From: Alphaproteobacteria bacterium
Lineage (GTDB): Bacteria > Pseudomonadota > Alphaproteobacteria > GCA-2731375
DNA: 64,000 bases
Reading direction: 5' to 3'
NCBI GenBank assembly: GCA_016776605.1
Contig: JADHTB010000007.1
Coordinates: 62,001 to 126,000, forward strand
The translations under genes and the position numbers were made by a program. Positions 36,135 through 59,442 of the stretch are shown piece by piece. The notes below the pieces were generated by a model. The model was not told where the DNA came from. It worked only from the letters and a program-made list of their open reading frames with translations, and searched no databases. Within the stretch, counting starts at the first letter, position 1, and every line of letters begins with the position of its first letter.

Positions 36135-37178
36135 TTAGTTCAGCAGTTGCAGCAGATCATATTCGGTTTCGGCGGCCCGGCGGCCAATGGCGGCGTATTC
36201 AATCGACCGTTGCTCGCCATCAATATGGGTGAAGCCCAGGATCATACACAGAATGCCCCAACGCAGGGTGCCGAAAACCTGCCAAAAATAGATTTCAGCC
36301 GGGTCCAGCCGGCCGCCGCCGCCGGCCTCATAGCCGTCCAGCATTTCCGAGACATCGCCAAATCCGCCCACCACCTTGTCATGATAGCCATAGCGCCAGG
36401 AACGCACACACATCCAACCCAGATCGCTGTTCGGGTTGCCCAAATGGGCGGATTCCCAATCCAGCACACCGCGCAGGCCATCCGGGTTGACCAGAATGTT
36501 GCCGTTACGAAAATCCCCGTGGTTCAGGGTATAGCGGTCGCCGGCTTGTTCCAGCCGCTCCTGCAACCAGCGGAAACCATATTCAAAACCGGCGTGGGGT
36601 TGATGAAAGGAATCCATGATGCTGCGGTAATGCAGTAATTCTTCCGCCGCCGGCAAGCCCCGCATGGGCGGCAGAAGATCAAGGTCGATACCGTGAAAGC
36701 GGGCGGCGGCATGGCCTATCTGGAAGGCCAGCTTGGGCCGGGCCCCGGCGTAGGTGTCTTCGCGCAGGATACGCCGACCCAACGTCTCACCTTCCAGCCG
36801 CTGAGTGAAAAAACCCTCTGTCGTGCGCTCATCCCTGGCTAGAAAGAACGGCACCTCTGGCACCGGCGTCCCCGCCCCGCCGGCCAATTGAAACAACCTG
36901 CCTTCGGTCCAACGGTCAACCGCCAGACGGCCCTCGGGCACACCTTCGAATTGCTTGTCCGCCTGACGGTCCATGGGGTCGCGTTTCAGGATCAACGGTT
37001 GGCGCGCGCCGGACGGCGGCACGGCATCGAAAGACCAGGTCTCTCGGCTGGCCCCGCCCGAGAGACGTACCAGGTCCTCGACCTTGGTGCCAGGGCCATA
37101 TTCCACCGCCATGCGGTCGCGCAACACCGCCGCCAATTGTTCGCCGGCGGTCAGATCGGGGTTCTGTACCGCGTCCAT
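36135..37178 (-). CDS. APH-family phosphotransferase (ACAD10/11 N-domain-like), copy 1
   Basis: 347 residues with the aminoglycoside phosphotransferase-like kinase fold: RLSGGASRETWSFDAV (nucleotide loop), PLILKRDPMDRQ, catalytic loop TLNHGDFRNGNILVN and metal-binding GVLDWESAHLGNPNSDLGW. Such kinases outside antibiotic resistance phosphorylate hydroxyacyl-CoAs or other small alcohols. It is clearly a duplicate of the next gene upstream, with shared blocks such as EGRLFQLAG / EGRLMQLAG and RRILREDTYAGARPKLAFQ / RRILREDAYAQARPKLAFQ. Three bases separate the two genes. Confidence 0.87.
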   Translation of the reverse strand: MDAVQNPDLTAGEQLAAVLRDRMAVEYGPGTKVEDLVRLSGGASRETWSFDAVPPSGARQPLILKRDPMDRQADKQFEGVPEGRLAVDRWTEGRLFQLAGGAGTPVPEVPFFLARDERTTEGFFTQRLEGETLGRRILREDTYAGARPKLAFQIGHAAARFHGIDLDLLPPMRGLPAAEELLHYRSIMDSFHQPHAGFEYGFRWLQERLEQAGDRYTLNHGDFRNGNILVNPDGLRGVLDWESAHLGNPNSDLGWMCVRSWRYGYHDKVVGGFGDVSEMLDGYEAGGGGRLDPAEIYFWQVFGTLRWGILCMILGFTHIDGEQRSIEYAAIGRRAAETEYDLLQLLN

Positions 37179-37181
37179 CAG

Positions 37182-38261
37182 TTAGTCCACCAACTGCAAC
37201 AGATCGTATTCACCTTCCACCGCGCGCCGGCCGATGGAAACTTTTTCGAGCGAGCGTTCCCGGCCATCAATATGGGTAAAGGCCATGATCATGCACACCA
37301 CGCCCCAACGCAGACAGCCGAAGGCTTCCCAAAAACGCAGCCTCTCCAACGGCACCCGGCCGCCGCCGGCCGCCTCGTAACCATCCAGCAGATCGGCCAC
37401 CTCGCCAAAACCGCCCACCGGCTTGTCGTAATAGCCATAGCGCCAGGCGCGGATGCAAATCCAACCCAGGTCGGAGATGGGATTTCCCAGTTGGCCCAAC
37501 TCCCAATCCAGAACCCCGCGCAAACCGGCGCCATCGACCAGCAGATTGCCGTTACGAAAATCACCATGCACCAGGGTCAACCGGTCGCCGGCCAGTTCCA
37601 AACGTTCACGCAACCAGTGGATACCGTATTCAAAACCGGCGTGCGGCTGCTTGAAGGCATCGATGACATCTTGATGATAATCCAGGGCCTCCGTCGCCGT
37701 CAGGCTTGGCAGCTCCGGCAGTCGGTCGATGGGTATATCGTGAAACCGGGCCGCTGCCTCGCCGCATTGAAAGGCCAGTTTCGGGCGGGCCTGGGCGTAG
37801 GCATCTTCGCGCAGAATGCGCCGGCCCAGCGCCTCGCCGTCCAGGCGCTGCATCACGAAGCCGGCGGAGGTGCGGTCATCGGCGTCCAAAAAGAACGGTA
37901 CTTCCGGTACCGGCACGCCAACCTCGCCGGCCAATTGCATCAACCGCCCTTCGGTCCAGCGGTCGACACCCAGCAGCACATTGGCGCCACCTGGCTGGCC
38001 ATCTGTATTCCCGTCACGTATTTCGTTCAGCGGGTCGCGTTTCAGGATCAGGGGTTTGCGCTTGCCATCGGGCAATAAGGCGTCAAACGACCAGGTTTCC
38101 CGGCTGGCCCCGCCGGACAGACGCACCAACCCGTCGATTTCGGTGCCCGGTCCGTACACGTCTTGCACCCGGCCCCGCAGCACGGCGGCCAGATCCAGCG
38201 TCTGAATTTCGGCCTTCTTCCTGTTTATATCAGCCGTCATCGTCTGGTACTCATCCGCCAT
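37182..38261 (-). CDS. APH-family phosphotransferase, copy 2 (tandem paralogue)
   Basis: 359 residues from the ATG at 38261; a GTG nine bases earlier is possible. Kinase motifs: VRLSGGASRETWSFDALLPD, KPLILKRDPLNE, catalytic LVHGDFRNGNLLVDGAGLRG and VLDWELGQLGNPISDLGW. All catalytic positions are retained in both copies, so neither looks degenerate. It heads a likely operon with copy 1, the DUF6285 gene and perhaps mmcB. It is separated by 69 bases from the stop of the UGA-containing peroxiredoxin gene on the same strand. Confidence 0.87.
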   Translation of the reverse strand: MADEYQTMTADINRKKAEIQTLDLAAVLRGRVQDVYGPGTEIDGLVRLSGGASRETWSFDALLPDGKRKPLILKRDPLNEIRDGNTDGQPGGANVLLGVDRWTEGRLMQLAGEVGVPVPEVPFFLDADDRTSAGFVMQRLDGEALGRRILREDAYAQARPKLAFQCGEAAARFHDIPIDRLPELPSLTATEALDYHQDVIDAFKQPHAGFEYGIHWLRERLELAGDRLTLVHGDFRNGNLLVDGAGLRGVLDWELGQLGNPISDLGWICIRAWRYGYYDKPVGGFGEVADLLDGYEAAGGGRVPLERLRFWEAFGCLRWGVVCMIMAFTHIDGRERSLEKVSIGRRAVEGEYDLLQLVD

Positions 38262-38330
38262 GACCGGCACAATTTGACGTTAGGGTGGCCGGTGCAGTCT
38301 TTGATGAACCGACCACCCTGTCAATCTATT

Positions 38331-38774
38331 CTAGCCCAAATCCCGTAAAACCTCGTCCGGGTGTTCGGCGGGGACCACGGCGTCATAGACCTTGACGATA
38401 TGGCCATCGGGATCGATCAGAAAACTATGCCGGGCGGGATACGGCTTTTCCGCCTGGATCACGCCATAGGCCGCGCCCGCAACCTGATCGGGATCACTAA
38501 GCAGGTCATAGGGAAAGTCGAACTTTTCCTGAAAAGCACGGTTATCCTCCGGCGTGTCAAACGACGCGCCCAGAATCACCGTGTTCTTAGCCGTAAAGTC
38601 TTGGATTCTATCACGGAACCCTTTGCCTTCAACGGTTCAGCCAGGTGTGTCGGCCTTGGGGTACCACCACAGCAGCACGTGCTGGCCGCGATATTGTTCC
38701 AGGGTCGTGGCCGCCCCCTGTTGGTTACGCATGGAAAAGGCCGGTGCCAAATCCCCCGCTTTCAATAACGCCAT
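38331..38774 (-). CDS. Peroxiredoxin (Bcp/Prx-like) with in-frame UGA at the peroxidatic Cys: candidate selenoprotein
   Basis: Read from the ATG at 38774, the frame runs 148 codons to the stop at 38331 with a single internal TGA at 38639-38637 (codon 46). Before it: MALLKAGDLAPAFSMRNQQG and LLWWYPKADTPG; after it: TVEGKGFRDRIQDF, VILGASFDTPEDNRAF, YDLLSDPDQVAGAAYGV and ARHSFLIDPDGHIVKVYD. In Bcp-type peroxiredoxins this position is the peroxidatic Cys of TPGCT, so UGA most simply encodes selenocysteine (Sec46). The predicted protein has no cysteine at all, including none at the resolving position five residues later (Lys51). GAGGAG lies 8-9 bases before the start. It probably reduces peroxides with thioredoxin or glutathione. 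Alternatives: a nonsense mutation or sequencing error. sel genes are not in the window. Confidence 0.82.
38603..38621 (-). promoter_or_regulatory. Candidate bacterial SECIS hairpin downstream of the in-frame UGA
   Basis: On the coding strand GGGTTC (38621-38616) pairs with GAATCC (38608-38603), one G-U pair, around a seven-base loop CGTGATA with G at loop position 2. The loop begins 21 nt after the UGA, within the spacing accepted for bacterial SECIS elements. A competing stem GAACC/GGTTC starts at the UGA itself. Pairing was judged by eye; no folding energy was computed. Confidence 0.55.
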
Positions 38775-38824
38775 GATCTATTCTCCTCTGTTGTCATGGT
38801 GGTGCTAAATATCGAATGAAAATT

Positions 38825-39475
38825 TCAAGCCATCGTAGCGGCCAGGCCGCGCAAATAATCCAACACCTGATCACCGGTGATGACATCGCCATATTTGGCT
38901 TCAATGTCGAACAGGTTGGCGTCATGGGGACCAATGGCCCGATCACCCACGCCATCGCTCACGACAATGGTGTAATAGGCGTACTGCAGGGAATCCACCG
39001 CAGAAGCGCGCACGCAACCGGATGTAGTGGCCCCCGTGATGACCACGGTATCCACGTTCCGGGCGCGCAGATAGCTATCCAAATCCGTGCCAAAGAAGGC
39101 GGAGGCATAATTTTTGGAAACCACATATTCGCCCGGCAGCGGCTTGATCCGCGCGTCCACCGCGCAATTGGGCGAGCCTTTGCGCAGAATACCCAGGGAC
39201 GGTATTTTCTTAACGAAGACGCCGCCGTCTGACAGATCCTCCTGGTATTCCACGGTGGTGTAAACGATGGGCAAACCGGATTTTCGAAACGCCGTCTGCA
39301 ATTGCGCCGTGACCGCCAATTGGCTGGAAAAATCGCCGCCCAGGGGCGAGTCAGGATCGGTAAACCCAACGATGAAATCCACCACCAGCAAGGCCGGCTT
39401 TTTGCCAAAGCCGGACGACACGGCAAAACCCTTGCTTTTATAATCGGCCCGCGTCTCGCGTTCCCAATCCGCCAT
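38825..39475 (-). CDS. Isochorismatase-family cysteine hydrolase
   Basis: 216 residues from the ATG at 39475, preceded by AGAGG six bases upstream; longer frames exist but lack this site. The hydrolase triad is present: Asp in LLVVDFIVGF, Lys in VVSKNYASAFF, Cys in TGATTSGCVRASAVDSL, with the usual cis-peptide before the Cys. Closest described types are N-carbamoylsarcosine amidase and related amidohydrolases acting on small amides. It lies 50 bases upstream of the UGA-containing peroxiredoxin on the same strand and could be cotranscribed. A damaged paralogue is at 56245-56881. Confidence 0.9.
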   Translation of the reverse strand: MADWERETRADYKSKGFAVSSGFGKKPALLVVDFIVGFTDPDSPLGGDFSSQLAVTAQLQTAFRKSGLPIVYTTVEYQEDLSDGGVFVKKIPSLGILRKGSPNCAVDARIKPLPGEYVVSKNYASAFFGTDLDSYLRARNVDTVVITGATTSGCVRASAVDSLQYAYYTIVVSDGVGDRAIGPHDANLFDIEAKYGDVITGDQVLDYLRGLAATMA

Positions 39476-39747
39476 GGTCAACCTCTCACGCATCGGGGGC
39501 CGGGCACCGCCCCACGCCGCCGTTTCCGCTGGCACTAGCAATAGCATCCGAGAGCCGGCACATCAACGCACGCGCCACCAGCGATGTGCGCTTTCGAAAT
39601 TCAACGTCAGAGTATAGAATATCTACCGCCTGATGAATGGTGTTATCGAACACCTCAACAAATTAGTAATAAAATCGATATATTTATAGCATTTAGACTA
39701 CATGCCGGCGGATACCTGCTCATGTTAACCAAAATGGGTACTTTGCA

Positions 39748-58507: not shown

Positions 58508-58603
58508 GCGGGGGTCGATCCACGAAATGGCAAACCGTCGGTAACGGCGGGACGCAGAGCCACCGGTCCAACCAACCCAGAAAGGGTGATGGATAGCGGA
58601 GCC
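58508..58603 (+). ncRNA. Cyclic di-GMP-I (GEMM) riboswitch upstream of flagellin
   Basis: Matches the GEMM-I core in order: CCACGAAATGGCAAACC, then stem CCGTCG-GTAA-CGGCGG (a GNRA tetraloop closed by six pairs at about 58535-58550), GGGACGCAGAGCC, CCGGTCC, a second stem ACCC-AGAA-AGGGT and GGATAGCGG. Compared by memory with the Vibrio cholerae Vc2 aptamer, the GCAAACC, GGGACGCA-AGCC and AGCGG blocks are conserved. It lies about 20 nt upstream of the flagellin start, where it can control ribosome access or transcription. Boundaries of P1 are approximate. Confidence 0.85.
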
Positions 58604-58623
58604 TTCGAAAAGGAAGACGCACC

Positions 58624-59442
58624 ATGGTGAACTCTATCAACACCAATAACGCCGCCGCGACAGGGTTGCGCCAGTTGTCGGCCACCAGGGATAACCTGGA
58701 AAAAATCCAAACCCACATTTCCACCGGCAAGAAGATCAACTCGCCCAAGGACGATGCCGCCACCCTGGCCATCGCCCAGCAGTTGATTTCGACCTTTGAA
58801 GGCACCGGGGCGGTGCGCGAGGGCCTAAGCCGGGCCAGCGCCACGATCGATGTTGCCTTGGCCGCCGGGGAATCGACCGCAGACTTGCTGGTCGAGATGA
58901 AGGGCTTGGCGGTTCAGGCCAATCAAGCGGGGCTGGATCAAAACTCGCGCGATGCCATGAATTCGGCCTTCAACGCGCTCCGTGATCAGGTCGCCAGTAT
59001 TAACGACAGCGCCAGCTTCGCGGGCACCAATCTGGTTGCCGCAGGCGCAGCGGATCAGAACATCCTAAGTGACGACAACGGCGGACGCATTACCGTCGGC
59101 GCCCAAGATTTATCCACGGGCGGCCTTGGTATTGCCAGCCTTTCGCTGAATACCTTTGGCAACGCCGCAACCGCGTTGAGCGGCCTTGATGCGGCGATCA
59201 CCGATGCTTCGTCGAAACTGGCCAATCTTGGCAGTTCGGCCAAGCGCATCGAAACCCACGACGTACTCCTCGGCAAACAAAACGATACCTTGCGTGCCGG
59301 CATCGGCAATCTGGTGGACGCGGACATGGCGGAAGAAAGCGCCGCGTTGCAGTCCAATCAGATCAAGGAGTCCCTGGGCGTGATCAGCCTTGGCGTCGCC
59401 AACGCGGCCCCTTCGCGGATGCTCGCACTGTTTGGTGGCTAG
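58624..59442 (+). CDS. Flagellin
   Basis: 272 residues, the short form seen in many alphaproteobacteria: conserved N-terminal D0/D1 (MVNSINTNNAAATGLRQLSA, ISTGKKINSPKDDAATLAIA), a reduced central region, and C-terminal D0 (NLVDADMAEESAALQSNQIK, SLGVISLGVANAAPSRMLAL). It is exported by the flagellar type III system and polymerises into the filament. GGAAG lies 7 bases before the ATG, just after the c-di-GMP riboswitch, so filament synthesis is probably tied to c-di-GMP. No other flagellar gene is adjacent. A 10-bp GC hairpin follows. Confidence 0.95.
   Translation: MVNSINTNNAAATGLRQLSATRDNLEKIQTHISTGKKINSPKDDAATLAIAQQLISTFEGTGAVREGLSRASATIDVALAAGESTADLLVEMKGLAVQANQAGLDQNSRDAMNSAFNALRDQVASINDSASFAGTNLVAAGAADQNILSDDNGGRITVGAQDLSTGGLGIASLSLNTFGNAATALSGLDAAITDASSKLANLGSSAKRIETHDVLLGKQNDTLRAGIGNLVDADMAEESAALQSNQIKESLGVISLGVANAAPSRMLALFGG

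What the first reader, a model, noticed from the sequence alone, without database searches (positions are those of the whole stretch)
38331..38774. Candidate selenocysteine peroxiredoxin: in-frame UGA exactly at the peroxidatic cysteine
The sequence shows one uninterrupted 148-codon peroxiredoxin frame except for TGA at codon 46, where Bcp/Prx proteins have the catalytic Cys (WWYPKADTPG-U-TVEG). The frame is the same on both sides, so there is no indel; the flanks are well conserved, and a strong GAGGAG site precedes the ATG. Sec-containing peroxiredoxins are known in some bacteria (for example PrxU of Eubacterium acidaminophilum) and from marine metagenomes. Automated annotation would give only a truncated protein starting at 38579 or call a pseudogene.
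Basis: partly seen in the sequence, partly recalled or inferred. Interest (0 to 1): 0.93.

Follow-up and report, generated by a model that had tools for sequence, protein, structure and literature searches.

The report
Selenocysteine peroxiredoxin of uncultured Alphaproteobacteria
This gene almost certainly reads a stop codon as selenocysteine to make a peroxide-destroying enzyme; the enzyme type was already known from ocean bacteria, and this example is unusual mainly in containing no cysteine at all.

Summary
On the minus strand (38774-38331) a 147-residue peroxiredoxin frame is broken only by TGA at codon 46, the peroxidatic position (TPG-U-TVEG). The genome carries tRNA-Sec, SelA, SelB and a TGA-containing SelD. 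TGA is conserved in 79 of the 80 loci kept from a genome scan (best 80 of 147). dN/dS is about 0.1 on both sides. Of 47 amino-acid-conserved codon columns, the four with least synonymous variation lie just after the TGA and form a SECIS-like hairpin that meets the published model (the energy criterion only with its lower stem). A CGUG-loop hairpin 20-21 nt after TGA recurs in this genome's selD, selW-like and second Sec-peroxiredoxin genes. So it is very probably a genuine selenoprotein. It has no cysteine, so it should act as a one-selenol peroxidase recycled by outside thiols (inferred). Sec-peroxiredoxins (COG1225, TxxU) have been reported from marine metagenomes since 2005: a new member of a known kind. 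Modest additions: a nearly all-Sec clade among loci seen, no cysteine in half of them, the shared loop, and a genus-level gene cluster.

The parts
38331..38774 (-). Sec-peroxiredoxin gene (Bcp/PrxQ-like, AhpC-TSA family), 147 aa with Sec46, stop TAG; no Cys codon
38637..38639 (-). in-frame UGA (codon 46) at the peroxidatic position, motif PxxxTxxU (P39, T43, U46); R115 invariant in 13 of 13 aligned proteins
38603..38621 (-). SECIS-like hairpin: 6-bp stem GGGUUC/GAAUCC, 7-nt loop CGUGAUA beginning after 21 nt downstream of the UGA
38783..38788 (-). GAGGAG ribosome-binding site, 8 nt before the ATG
38825..39547 (-). upstream neighbour, isochorismatase-family hydrolase (PF00857), 50 nt from the peroxiredoxin start; neighbour in close relatives too
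37182..38270 (-). downstream neighbour, APH-family phosphotransferase (PF01636); neighbour in close relatives too
36135..37178 (-). second APH-family phosphotransferase (PF01636), 3 nt from the previous gene; neighbour in close relatives too

Best explanation
A genuine selenoprotein gene. SelA, SelD and tRNA-Sec make Sec-tRNA. SelB delivers it to UGA46 by binding the hairpin at +19 to +37 (counted from the U of UGA), whose apical loop begins CGUG (inferred from sequence; binding not shown). The product is a Bcp/PrxQ-like peroxiredoxin with Sec as its only chalcogenol. It reduces H2O2 or alkyl peroxides through Sec46, activated by T43 and R115 (inferred from the family). Having no cysteine, it cannot form a resolving Se-S bond within itself or with another copy of itself, so the oxidised Sec must be reduced by external thiols such as glutathione, a glutaredoxin or a thioredoxin, in a glutathione-peroxidase-like cycle (inferred).
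For: Machinery in the same genome: tRNA-Sec 67.8 bits and ARAGORN tRNA-SeC(tca); SelB 407.8 bits over the whole model; SelA 584.2 bits, next to selB; SelD 386.7 bits with its own TGA. UGA in 79 of 80 kept loci. Purifying selection both sides, dN/dS 0.099 and 0.077 among 10 genomes. Of 47 amino-acid-conserved codon columns in 80 Sec genes, the four with least synonymous variation are 53 (TTC 80/80), 54 (CGT 80/80), 52 (GGG 74, GGA 6) and 56 (CGA 58, AGA 22; together 10% of Arg codons elsewhere in these genes). The hairpin has 6 bp, a 7-nt loop with GU at positions 2-3 and 21-nt spacing, within the model quoted in PMC13188914; bases +4 to +51 fold at -13.0 kcal/mol with stem probabilities 0.95-1.00. 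The own selD, selW-like, second Prx and this gene all have a CGUG-loop hairpin 20-21 nt after TGA (4 of 4, three independent since the two Prx are homologous), against 3 of 1713 TGA triplets in the window at 19-22 nt, this one included. SelA over cut-off in 12 of 13 genomes with the Sec gene against 6 of 48 without, Fisher p 1.2e-7, shared ancestry ignored. G007 and G012 copies end in TGA, so TGA still acts as a stop in those relatives. No Cys in 11 of 13 aligned proteins, this one included, nor within the match in 40 of 79 Sec loci; the CP+5 position, where E. coli Bcp has its resolving Cys (recalled), is never Cys in 79.
Against: The isolated 6-bp stem evaluates at only -6.0 kcal/mol; the -7.5 criterion is met only with the lower stem. 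No double compensatory change in the stem in the 13-sequence alignment. Of four 48-nt folds starting at the UGA, two (this gene and L026) prefer another hairpin, UGAACC/GGGUUC; this gene's energy there is ordinary (z -0.62). 5 of 402 stem cells over 67 distinct sequences are mispaired (counted). G003 has the Sec gene but no SelA hit; the genome of L105 likewise; G002 and G011 show no tRNA-Sec match above 60 bits; assembly gaps are possible but untested. 6 of 48 genomes have SelA without this gene; two of them, G021 and G041, have a weaker (27%) TGA-bearing match that I did not count. Loss of the CP+5 Cys is not special to Sec forms: 7 of 17 Cys-type relatives printed lack it too. Nothing shows expression or enzyme activity, and the thiol donor is not identified.
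Confidence: 0.9

Rival explanations
1. Pseudogene or sequencing error: TGA replaces a cysteine codon by mutation or base-calling error.
For: An automated ORF list shows a truncated gene, and the genome has a separate Cys Bcp-like paralogue.
Against: TGA at the same codon in 79 of 80 kept loci; dN/dS 0.077 after the TGA; Sec machinery present.
Confidence: 0.01
2. UGA is decoded by something else: near-cognate read-through or a reassigned code (UGA = Trp or Cys).
For: No direct proof of Sec in the protein.
Against: The G007 and G012 copies use TGA as their terminator; tRNA-Sec(tca), SelA, SelB and SelD are all present; a CGUG-loop hairpin is shared with selD and selW-like genes; UGA falls on the peroxidatic residue.
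Confidence: 0.02
3. Sec is inserted, but the protein works as a redox sensor or thiol oxidoreductase rather than a bulk peroxidase. With no resolving residue it could pass oxidation to a partner, perhaps linked to its neighbours.
For: No cysteine; an isochorismatase - Prx - APH - APH cluster in 7 loci of close relatives.
Against: The peroxiredoxin signature (P39, T43, U46, R115) is invariant in 13 of 13, and Bcp proteins are peroxidases (established knowledge). The neighbours' families suggest no redox partner.
Confidence: 0.12

Closest known systems
Sec-containing peroxiredoxin, COG1225 (Bcp), motif TxxU, of marine metagenomes (PMC1088965: 43 genes; PMC2398784: 253; listed in PMC9312934 and PMC13188914; passages read of each)
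   Same: Same COG/Pfam family, Sec at the peroxidatic position, TxxU motif
   Different: The passages I read give counts and motifs, not sequences, and do not say whether a resolving Cys is present. Here one group is placed in MAGs with its machinery, its SECIS loop and its gene neighbourhood.
PrxU of Eubacterium acidaminophilum (NCBIfam NF040737)
   Same: A selenocysteine peroxiredoxin
   Different: Different peroxiredoxin subfamily: the model scores 43.3 bits against a cut-off of 270, and is 233 positions long
Cys Bcp/PrxQ (NCBIfam PRK09437; PDB 3drn, 3gkn, 5iph)
   Same: Homologous over nearly the full length; PxxxTxx(C/U) motif
   Different: Sec in place of Cys; no Cys at the CP+5 position; below the Bcp equivalog cut-off (113.6 against 140); separate side of the tree, 100% SH-aLRT
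1-Cys peroxiredoxins and Sec glutathione peroxidases (recalled)
   Same: Would work with a single chalcogenol and external thiol
   Different: 1-Cys Prx6 is another peroxiredoxin subfamily; GPx is another family of the thioredoxin fold

Membership tests
Bacterial selenoprotein | In-frame UGA aligned with a catalytic Cys of homologues | tested here: met
Bacterial selenoprotein | Sec machinery in the genome (selA, selB, selC, selD) | tested here: met
Bacterial selenoprotein | SECIS: 4-16 bp stem, 3-9 nt loop with G in its first two positions, 16-37 nt spacing, MFE at most -7.5 kcal/mol (criteria quoted from PMC13188914) | tested here: met
   6 bp, 7 nt, loop starts CGU, 21 nt; energy -13.0 kcal/mol for bases +4 to +51 with the lower stem, but -6.0 for the isolated 6-bp stem
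Bacterial selenoprotein | Selenium found in the protein | not testable with these tools
   needs 75Se labelling or mass spectrometry
Peroxiredoxin (AhpC-TSA), Bcp/PrxQ type | Pfam AhpC-TSA/Redoxin match and PxxxTxx(C/U) plus conserved Arg | tested here: met
   (the Arg's role is recalled)
Peroxiredoxin (AhpC-TSA), Bcp/PrxQ type | NCBIfam Bcp equivalog cut-off (PRK09437, 140 bits) | tested here: not met
   113.6 bits, although the best NCBIfam hit; called Bcp-like, not the equivalog
2-Cys Bcp/PrxQ | Resolving Cys at CP+5 or elsewhere | tested here: not met
   No Cys in the protein; CP+5 is N 41, K 29, Q 7, S 1, E 1 of 79
PrxU (NF040737) | Equivalog cut-off 270 bits | tested here: not met
   43.3 bits
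Peroxiredoxin (AhpC-TSA), Bcp/PrxQ type | Peroxidase activity | not testable with these tools
   needs purified Sec protein

The most novel reading that the evidence does not exclude
A Sec-committed peroxiredoxin clade, mostly of uncultured Alphaproteobacteria, that has shed its resolving cysteine, and often every cysteine, and so works as a one-selenol peroxidase with external thiol, in organisms whose SelB reads a lineage-specific CGUG-loop SECIS common to several selenoprotein genes. Return to Cys may occur only where the Sec machinery is lost (one case so far, direction undecided).
Probability: 0.4. Interest if true: 0.5.

Novelty: new member of a known kind. Interest (0 to 1): 0.36.

Why it matters
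It recovers a full-length antioxidant enzyme that ordinary ORF calling truncates, with its machinery and a well-defined SECIS placed in an uncultured lineage. A Cys-free peroxiredoxin with one Sec is a clean system for asking what Sec buys over Cys and which thiol recycles it. The shared CGUG loop is a ready search key for other selenoproteins of this lineage.

Tried and rejected
Viral contigs: two protein scans found no relative. Plasmids: no DNA match; by protein 152 records, all under 60% identity, of which 10 were listed; their residue at position 46 was not examined. The phage and E. coli collections were not searched. Covariation as proof of the SECIS: not obtained; synonymous-codon constraint and the shared loop were used instead. 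Sec-to-Cys reversal of L132: the first tree nests it within the Sec clade, but the AU test does not reject all Sec rows held together with L132 outside (p 0.609; that tree is 7.44 log units better), so the direction is undecided. Its genome showed no SelA (completeness not told). A five-sequence SECIS alignment misplaced SelD, so no RNA model was built and no genome-wide SECIS search was made. The 80 loci are the best 80 of 147, so Cys forms farther out are not counted; one of the two scan patterns was written with the Cys codon (PGCT[VI]EGK), which favours Cys forms. Nine weaker TGA-bearing matches (25-29% identity) were left out of the Sec-gene count and not examined. Counting them would move G021 and G041 to the genomes with the gene. 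Promoter and terminator scan gave nothing I use. Structure prediction was not run. In one search my residue counter was off by one and printed G for all 80; the corrected count is. In some searches and 25 loci were missing or read on the wrong strand; one search replaces them.

Full report
What is there. The frame lies on the minus strand, 38774-38331: ATG, 147 codons, TAG, with one in-frame TGA at codon 46 (+ strand 38637-38639) and GAGGAG 8 nt before the ATG. The protein belongs to Pfam AhpC-TSA (E 5.8e-32). Its best NCBIfam model is Bcp, PRK09437, 113.6 bits, below that model's cut-off of 140; PrxU scores 43.3 against 270. The closest solved chain by sequence is a Bcp homologue, 3drn, E 1.2e-22. 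The peroxiredoxin signature P39, T43, U46 and R115 is invariant in 13 of 13 aligned proteins.

The TGA is conserved. A search of 61 genomes (own plus 60 relatives) found matches in 56. TGA-bearing matches of at least 42% identity come from 13 genomes: the own genome, 9 of 10 same-genus genomes and 3 of 4 same-family genomes. In the tenth same-genus genome (G008, 84% complete) and in G013 the only match has no TGA. Nine further TGA-bearing matches at 25-29% identity were not examined. A scan of genome contigs gave 147 relatives, of which the best 80 were kept. 79 of these have TGA and one, L132 (titled Caenispirillum bisanense MAG), has TGC. Titles are mostly Alphaproteobacteria or Rhodospirillaceae MAGs, with some Gammaproteobacteria, Gemmatimonadetes and SAR324. 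A marine origin of this lineage is my inference from a few titles and recall; no call states the habitat of the window.

It is translated on both sides. Among 10 same-genus genomes dN/dS is 0.099 before the TGA and 0.077 after it. TGA also ends the gene in G007 and G012, so the codon still acts as a stop in those relatives.

The machinery is present. tRNA-Sec: 67.8 bits, ARAGORN tRNA-SeC(tca); the next two Rfam hits, at 49.1 and 48.0 bits, are serine tRNAs. SelB 407.8 bits (cut-off 242.25) directly after SelA 584.2 bits (cut-off 267.9). SelD 386.7 bits (cut-off 125), itself with one TGA. Across the 61 genomes SelA is over its cut-off in 12 of 13 with the Sec gene and in 6 of 48 without (Fisher p 1.2e-7, which ignores shared ancestry). 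Two of those six, G021 and G041, have one of the unexamined weak TGA matches. The one Sec-gene genome without SelA is G003, which does have a tRNA-Sec match at 68.2 bits. In one search, 12 of 21 genomes have a match above 60 bits; the Sec-gene carriers G002 and G011 do not, and G014 was not in that call. Of nine genomes behind loci that I chose, 7 have SelA over the cut-off; the two without are that of the Cys form L132 and that of the Sec form L105.

The SECIS. Bases 19-37 counted from the U of UGA form GGGUUC-CGUGAUA-GAAUCC (38621-38603). The published bacterial model (passages of PMC13188914) asks for a 4-16 bp stem, 3-9 nt loop, G in the first two loop positions, 16-37 nt spacing and at most -7.5 kcal/mol. 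Here: 6 bp, 7 nt, CGU, 21 nt; -13.0 kcal/mol for bases +4 to +51, where a lower stem forms and the stem pair probabilities are 0.95-1.00, but only -6.0 for the isolated 6-bp stem. Against it: of four 48-nt folds starting at the UGA itself, two, this gene's among them, prefer another hairpin, and this gene's energy is ordinary (z -0.62); double compensatory changes are absent in the 13-sequence alignment. Codon use is stronger evidence. In 80 Sec genes (79 loci plus the window), of 47 columns with a conserved amino acid, the four with least synonymous variation are codons 53, 54, 52 and 56, all in the hairpin: TTC 80/80, CGT 80/80 (CGT is 15% of Arg codons elsewhere in these genes), GGG 74 and GGA 6, CGA 58 and AGA 22 (7% and 3% elsewhere). 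In the Cys form L132 the hairpin sequence is gone.

A shared loop. The own genome has at least three further TGA-bearing genes of known selenoprotein families: selD, a second peroxiredoxin at 42% identity (GKN-U-TIEA) and a SelW-like Rdx protein. All three and this gene carry a hairpin with a CGUG loop starting 20-21 nt after the TGA. In the window 3 of 1713 TGA triplets have such a hairpin at 19-22 nt, this gene included. The two peroxiredoxins are homologous, so these are three independent cases, not four. None of the 21 formate dehydrogenase alpha matches in the genome has a stop inside.

How it likely works. Shown by sequence: one Sec at the peroxidatic place and no Cys in the protein. Within the match, 40 of 79 Sec loci have no Cys, 33 one and 6 two; the residue five places after Sec, where E. 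coli Bcp has its resolving Cys (recalled), is N 41, K 29, Q 7, S 1 and E 1. Of 17 Cys-type Bcp-like proteins of relatives printed, I count Cys there in 10, so loss of that Cys is not confined to Sec forms. Inferred: Sec46 reduces peroxide, becomes selenenic acid, and is reduced in two steps by external thiol, as in glutathione peroxidases.

Neighbourhood. On the minus strand the order is isochorismatase-family hydrolase, Sec-peroxiredoxin, and two APH-family phosphotransferases, with gaps of 50, 60 and 3 nt. Of 80 loci searched with the neighbours' proteins (many loci are cut short), L054-L063 match all three queries. In 7 of these 10 the two APH queries hit separate, successive stretches just after the peroxiredoxin. 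In L056, L058 and L063 both hit one stretch that starts about 1.6 kb after it. L064 and L102 match the isochorismatase only. The cluster is thus a feature of the genus and close kin; an operon is plausible but unproven. PF01636 is a broad family, and the match says nothing about drug resistance.

Tree. With 17 Cys Bcp-like proteins of relatives and the own Cys paralogue, the Sec rows plus L132 form one side of a branch with 100% SH-aLRT. Whether L132 is a Sec-to-Cys reversal is undecided (p-AU 0.609).

What is in print. PMC1088965 (passages) lists 43 Sec-peroxiredoxin genes of COG1225 with motif TXXU from the Sargasso Sea. PMC2398784 (passages) lists 253 Sec-peroxiredoxins with TxxU from the Global Ocean Sampling data. 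PMC5029168 (passages) lists 91 in 78 bacteria. PMC9312934 (passages) files Prx under COG1225 (Bcp), TxxU. PMC1794560 (passages) in 2006 gave Alphaproteobacteria one selenoprotein family, and Prx five Cys-to-Sec and no Sec-to-Cys events. The paper searches listed none whose title or abstract start is about this clade; one search showed 20 of 73 papers and one search showed 12 of 17, and most subscription journals are not held. Verdict: well supported, ordinary in kind, a new member of a known family.

Noticed in passing
window 58519-58609 (+): c-di-GMP-I riboswitch (54.7 bits, gathering 35) directly upstream of a flagellin-domain gene 58624-59442: perhaps second-messenger control of motility.
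   Followed up: partly
L051:1854-2315 (+) (G000:C31, 93353-93814): Second Sec-peroxiredoxin of the same genome, 42% identical, with GKN-U-TIEA in place of TPG-U-TVEG: the catalytic Thr is replaced although the SECIS is kept.
   Followed up: partly
L138 (G000:C30:11361-11558, -): SelW-like Rdx protein with one TGA and a CGUG-loop hairpin.
   Followed up: partly
L015:1381-3681 (-): Second SelD in the genome: a 766-aa fusion of a pyridine nucleotide-disulphide oxidoreductase with AIRS domains and no TGA, beside the separate TGA-containing SelD. Ndh-SelD fusions are mentioned in PMC2398784 (passages).
   Followed up: partly
L108, L125: Loci titled Phycisphaerae and Flavobacteriales carry proteins that sit on very short branches beside alphaproteobacterial ones (L114, L113): probably misbinned contigs or mislabelled MAGs.
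   Followed up: no
L091, L103, L109, L112, L116, L118, L122, L124: Eight loci have TRG-U instead of TPG-U: Pro to Arg two places before the Sec.
   Followed up: no
G001, G003, G006, G009, G010, G011, G014, G021, G041: Nine weak peroxiredoxin matches (25-29% identity) also carry one TGA inside: possible further Sec Prx-like proteins.
   Followed up: no
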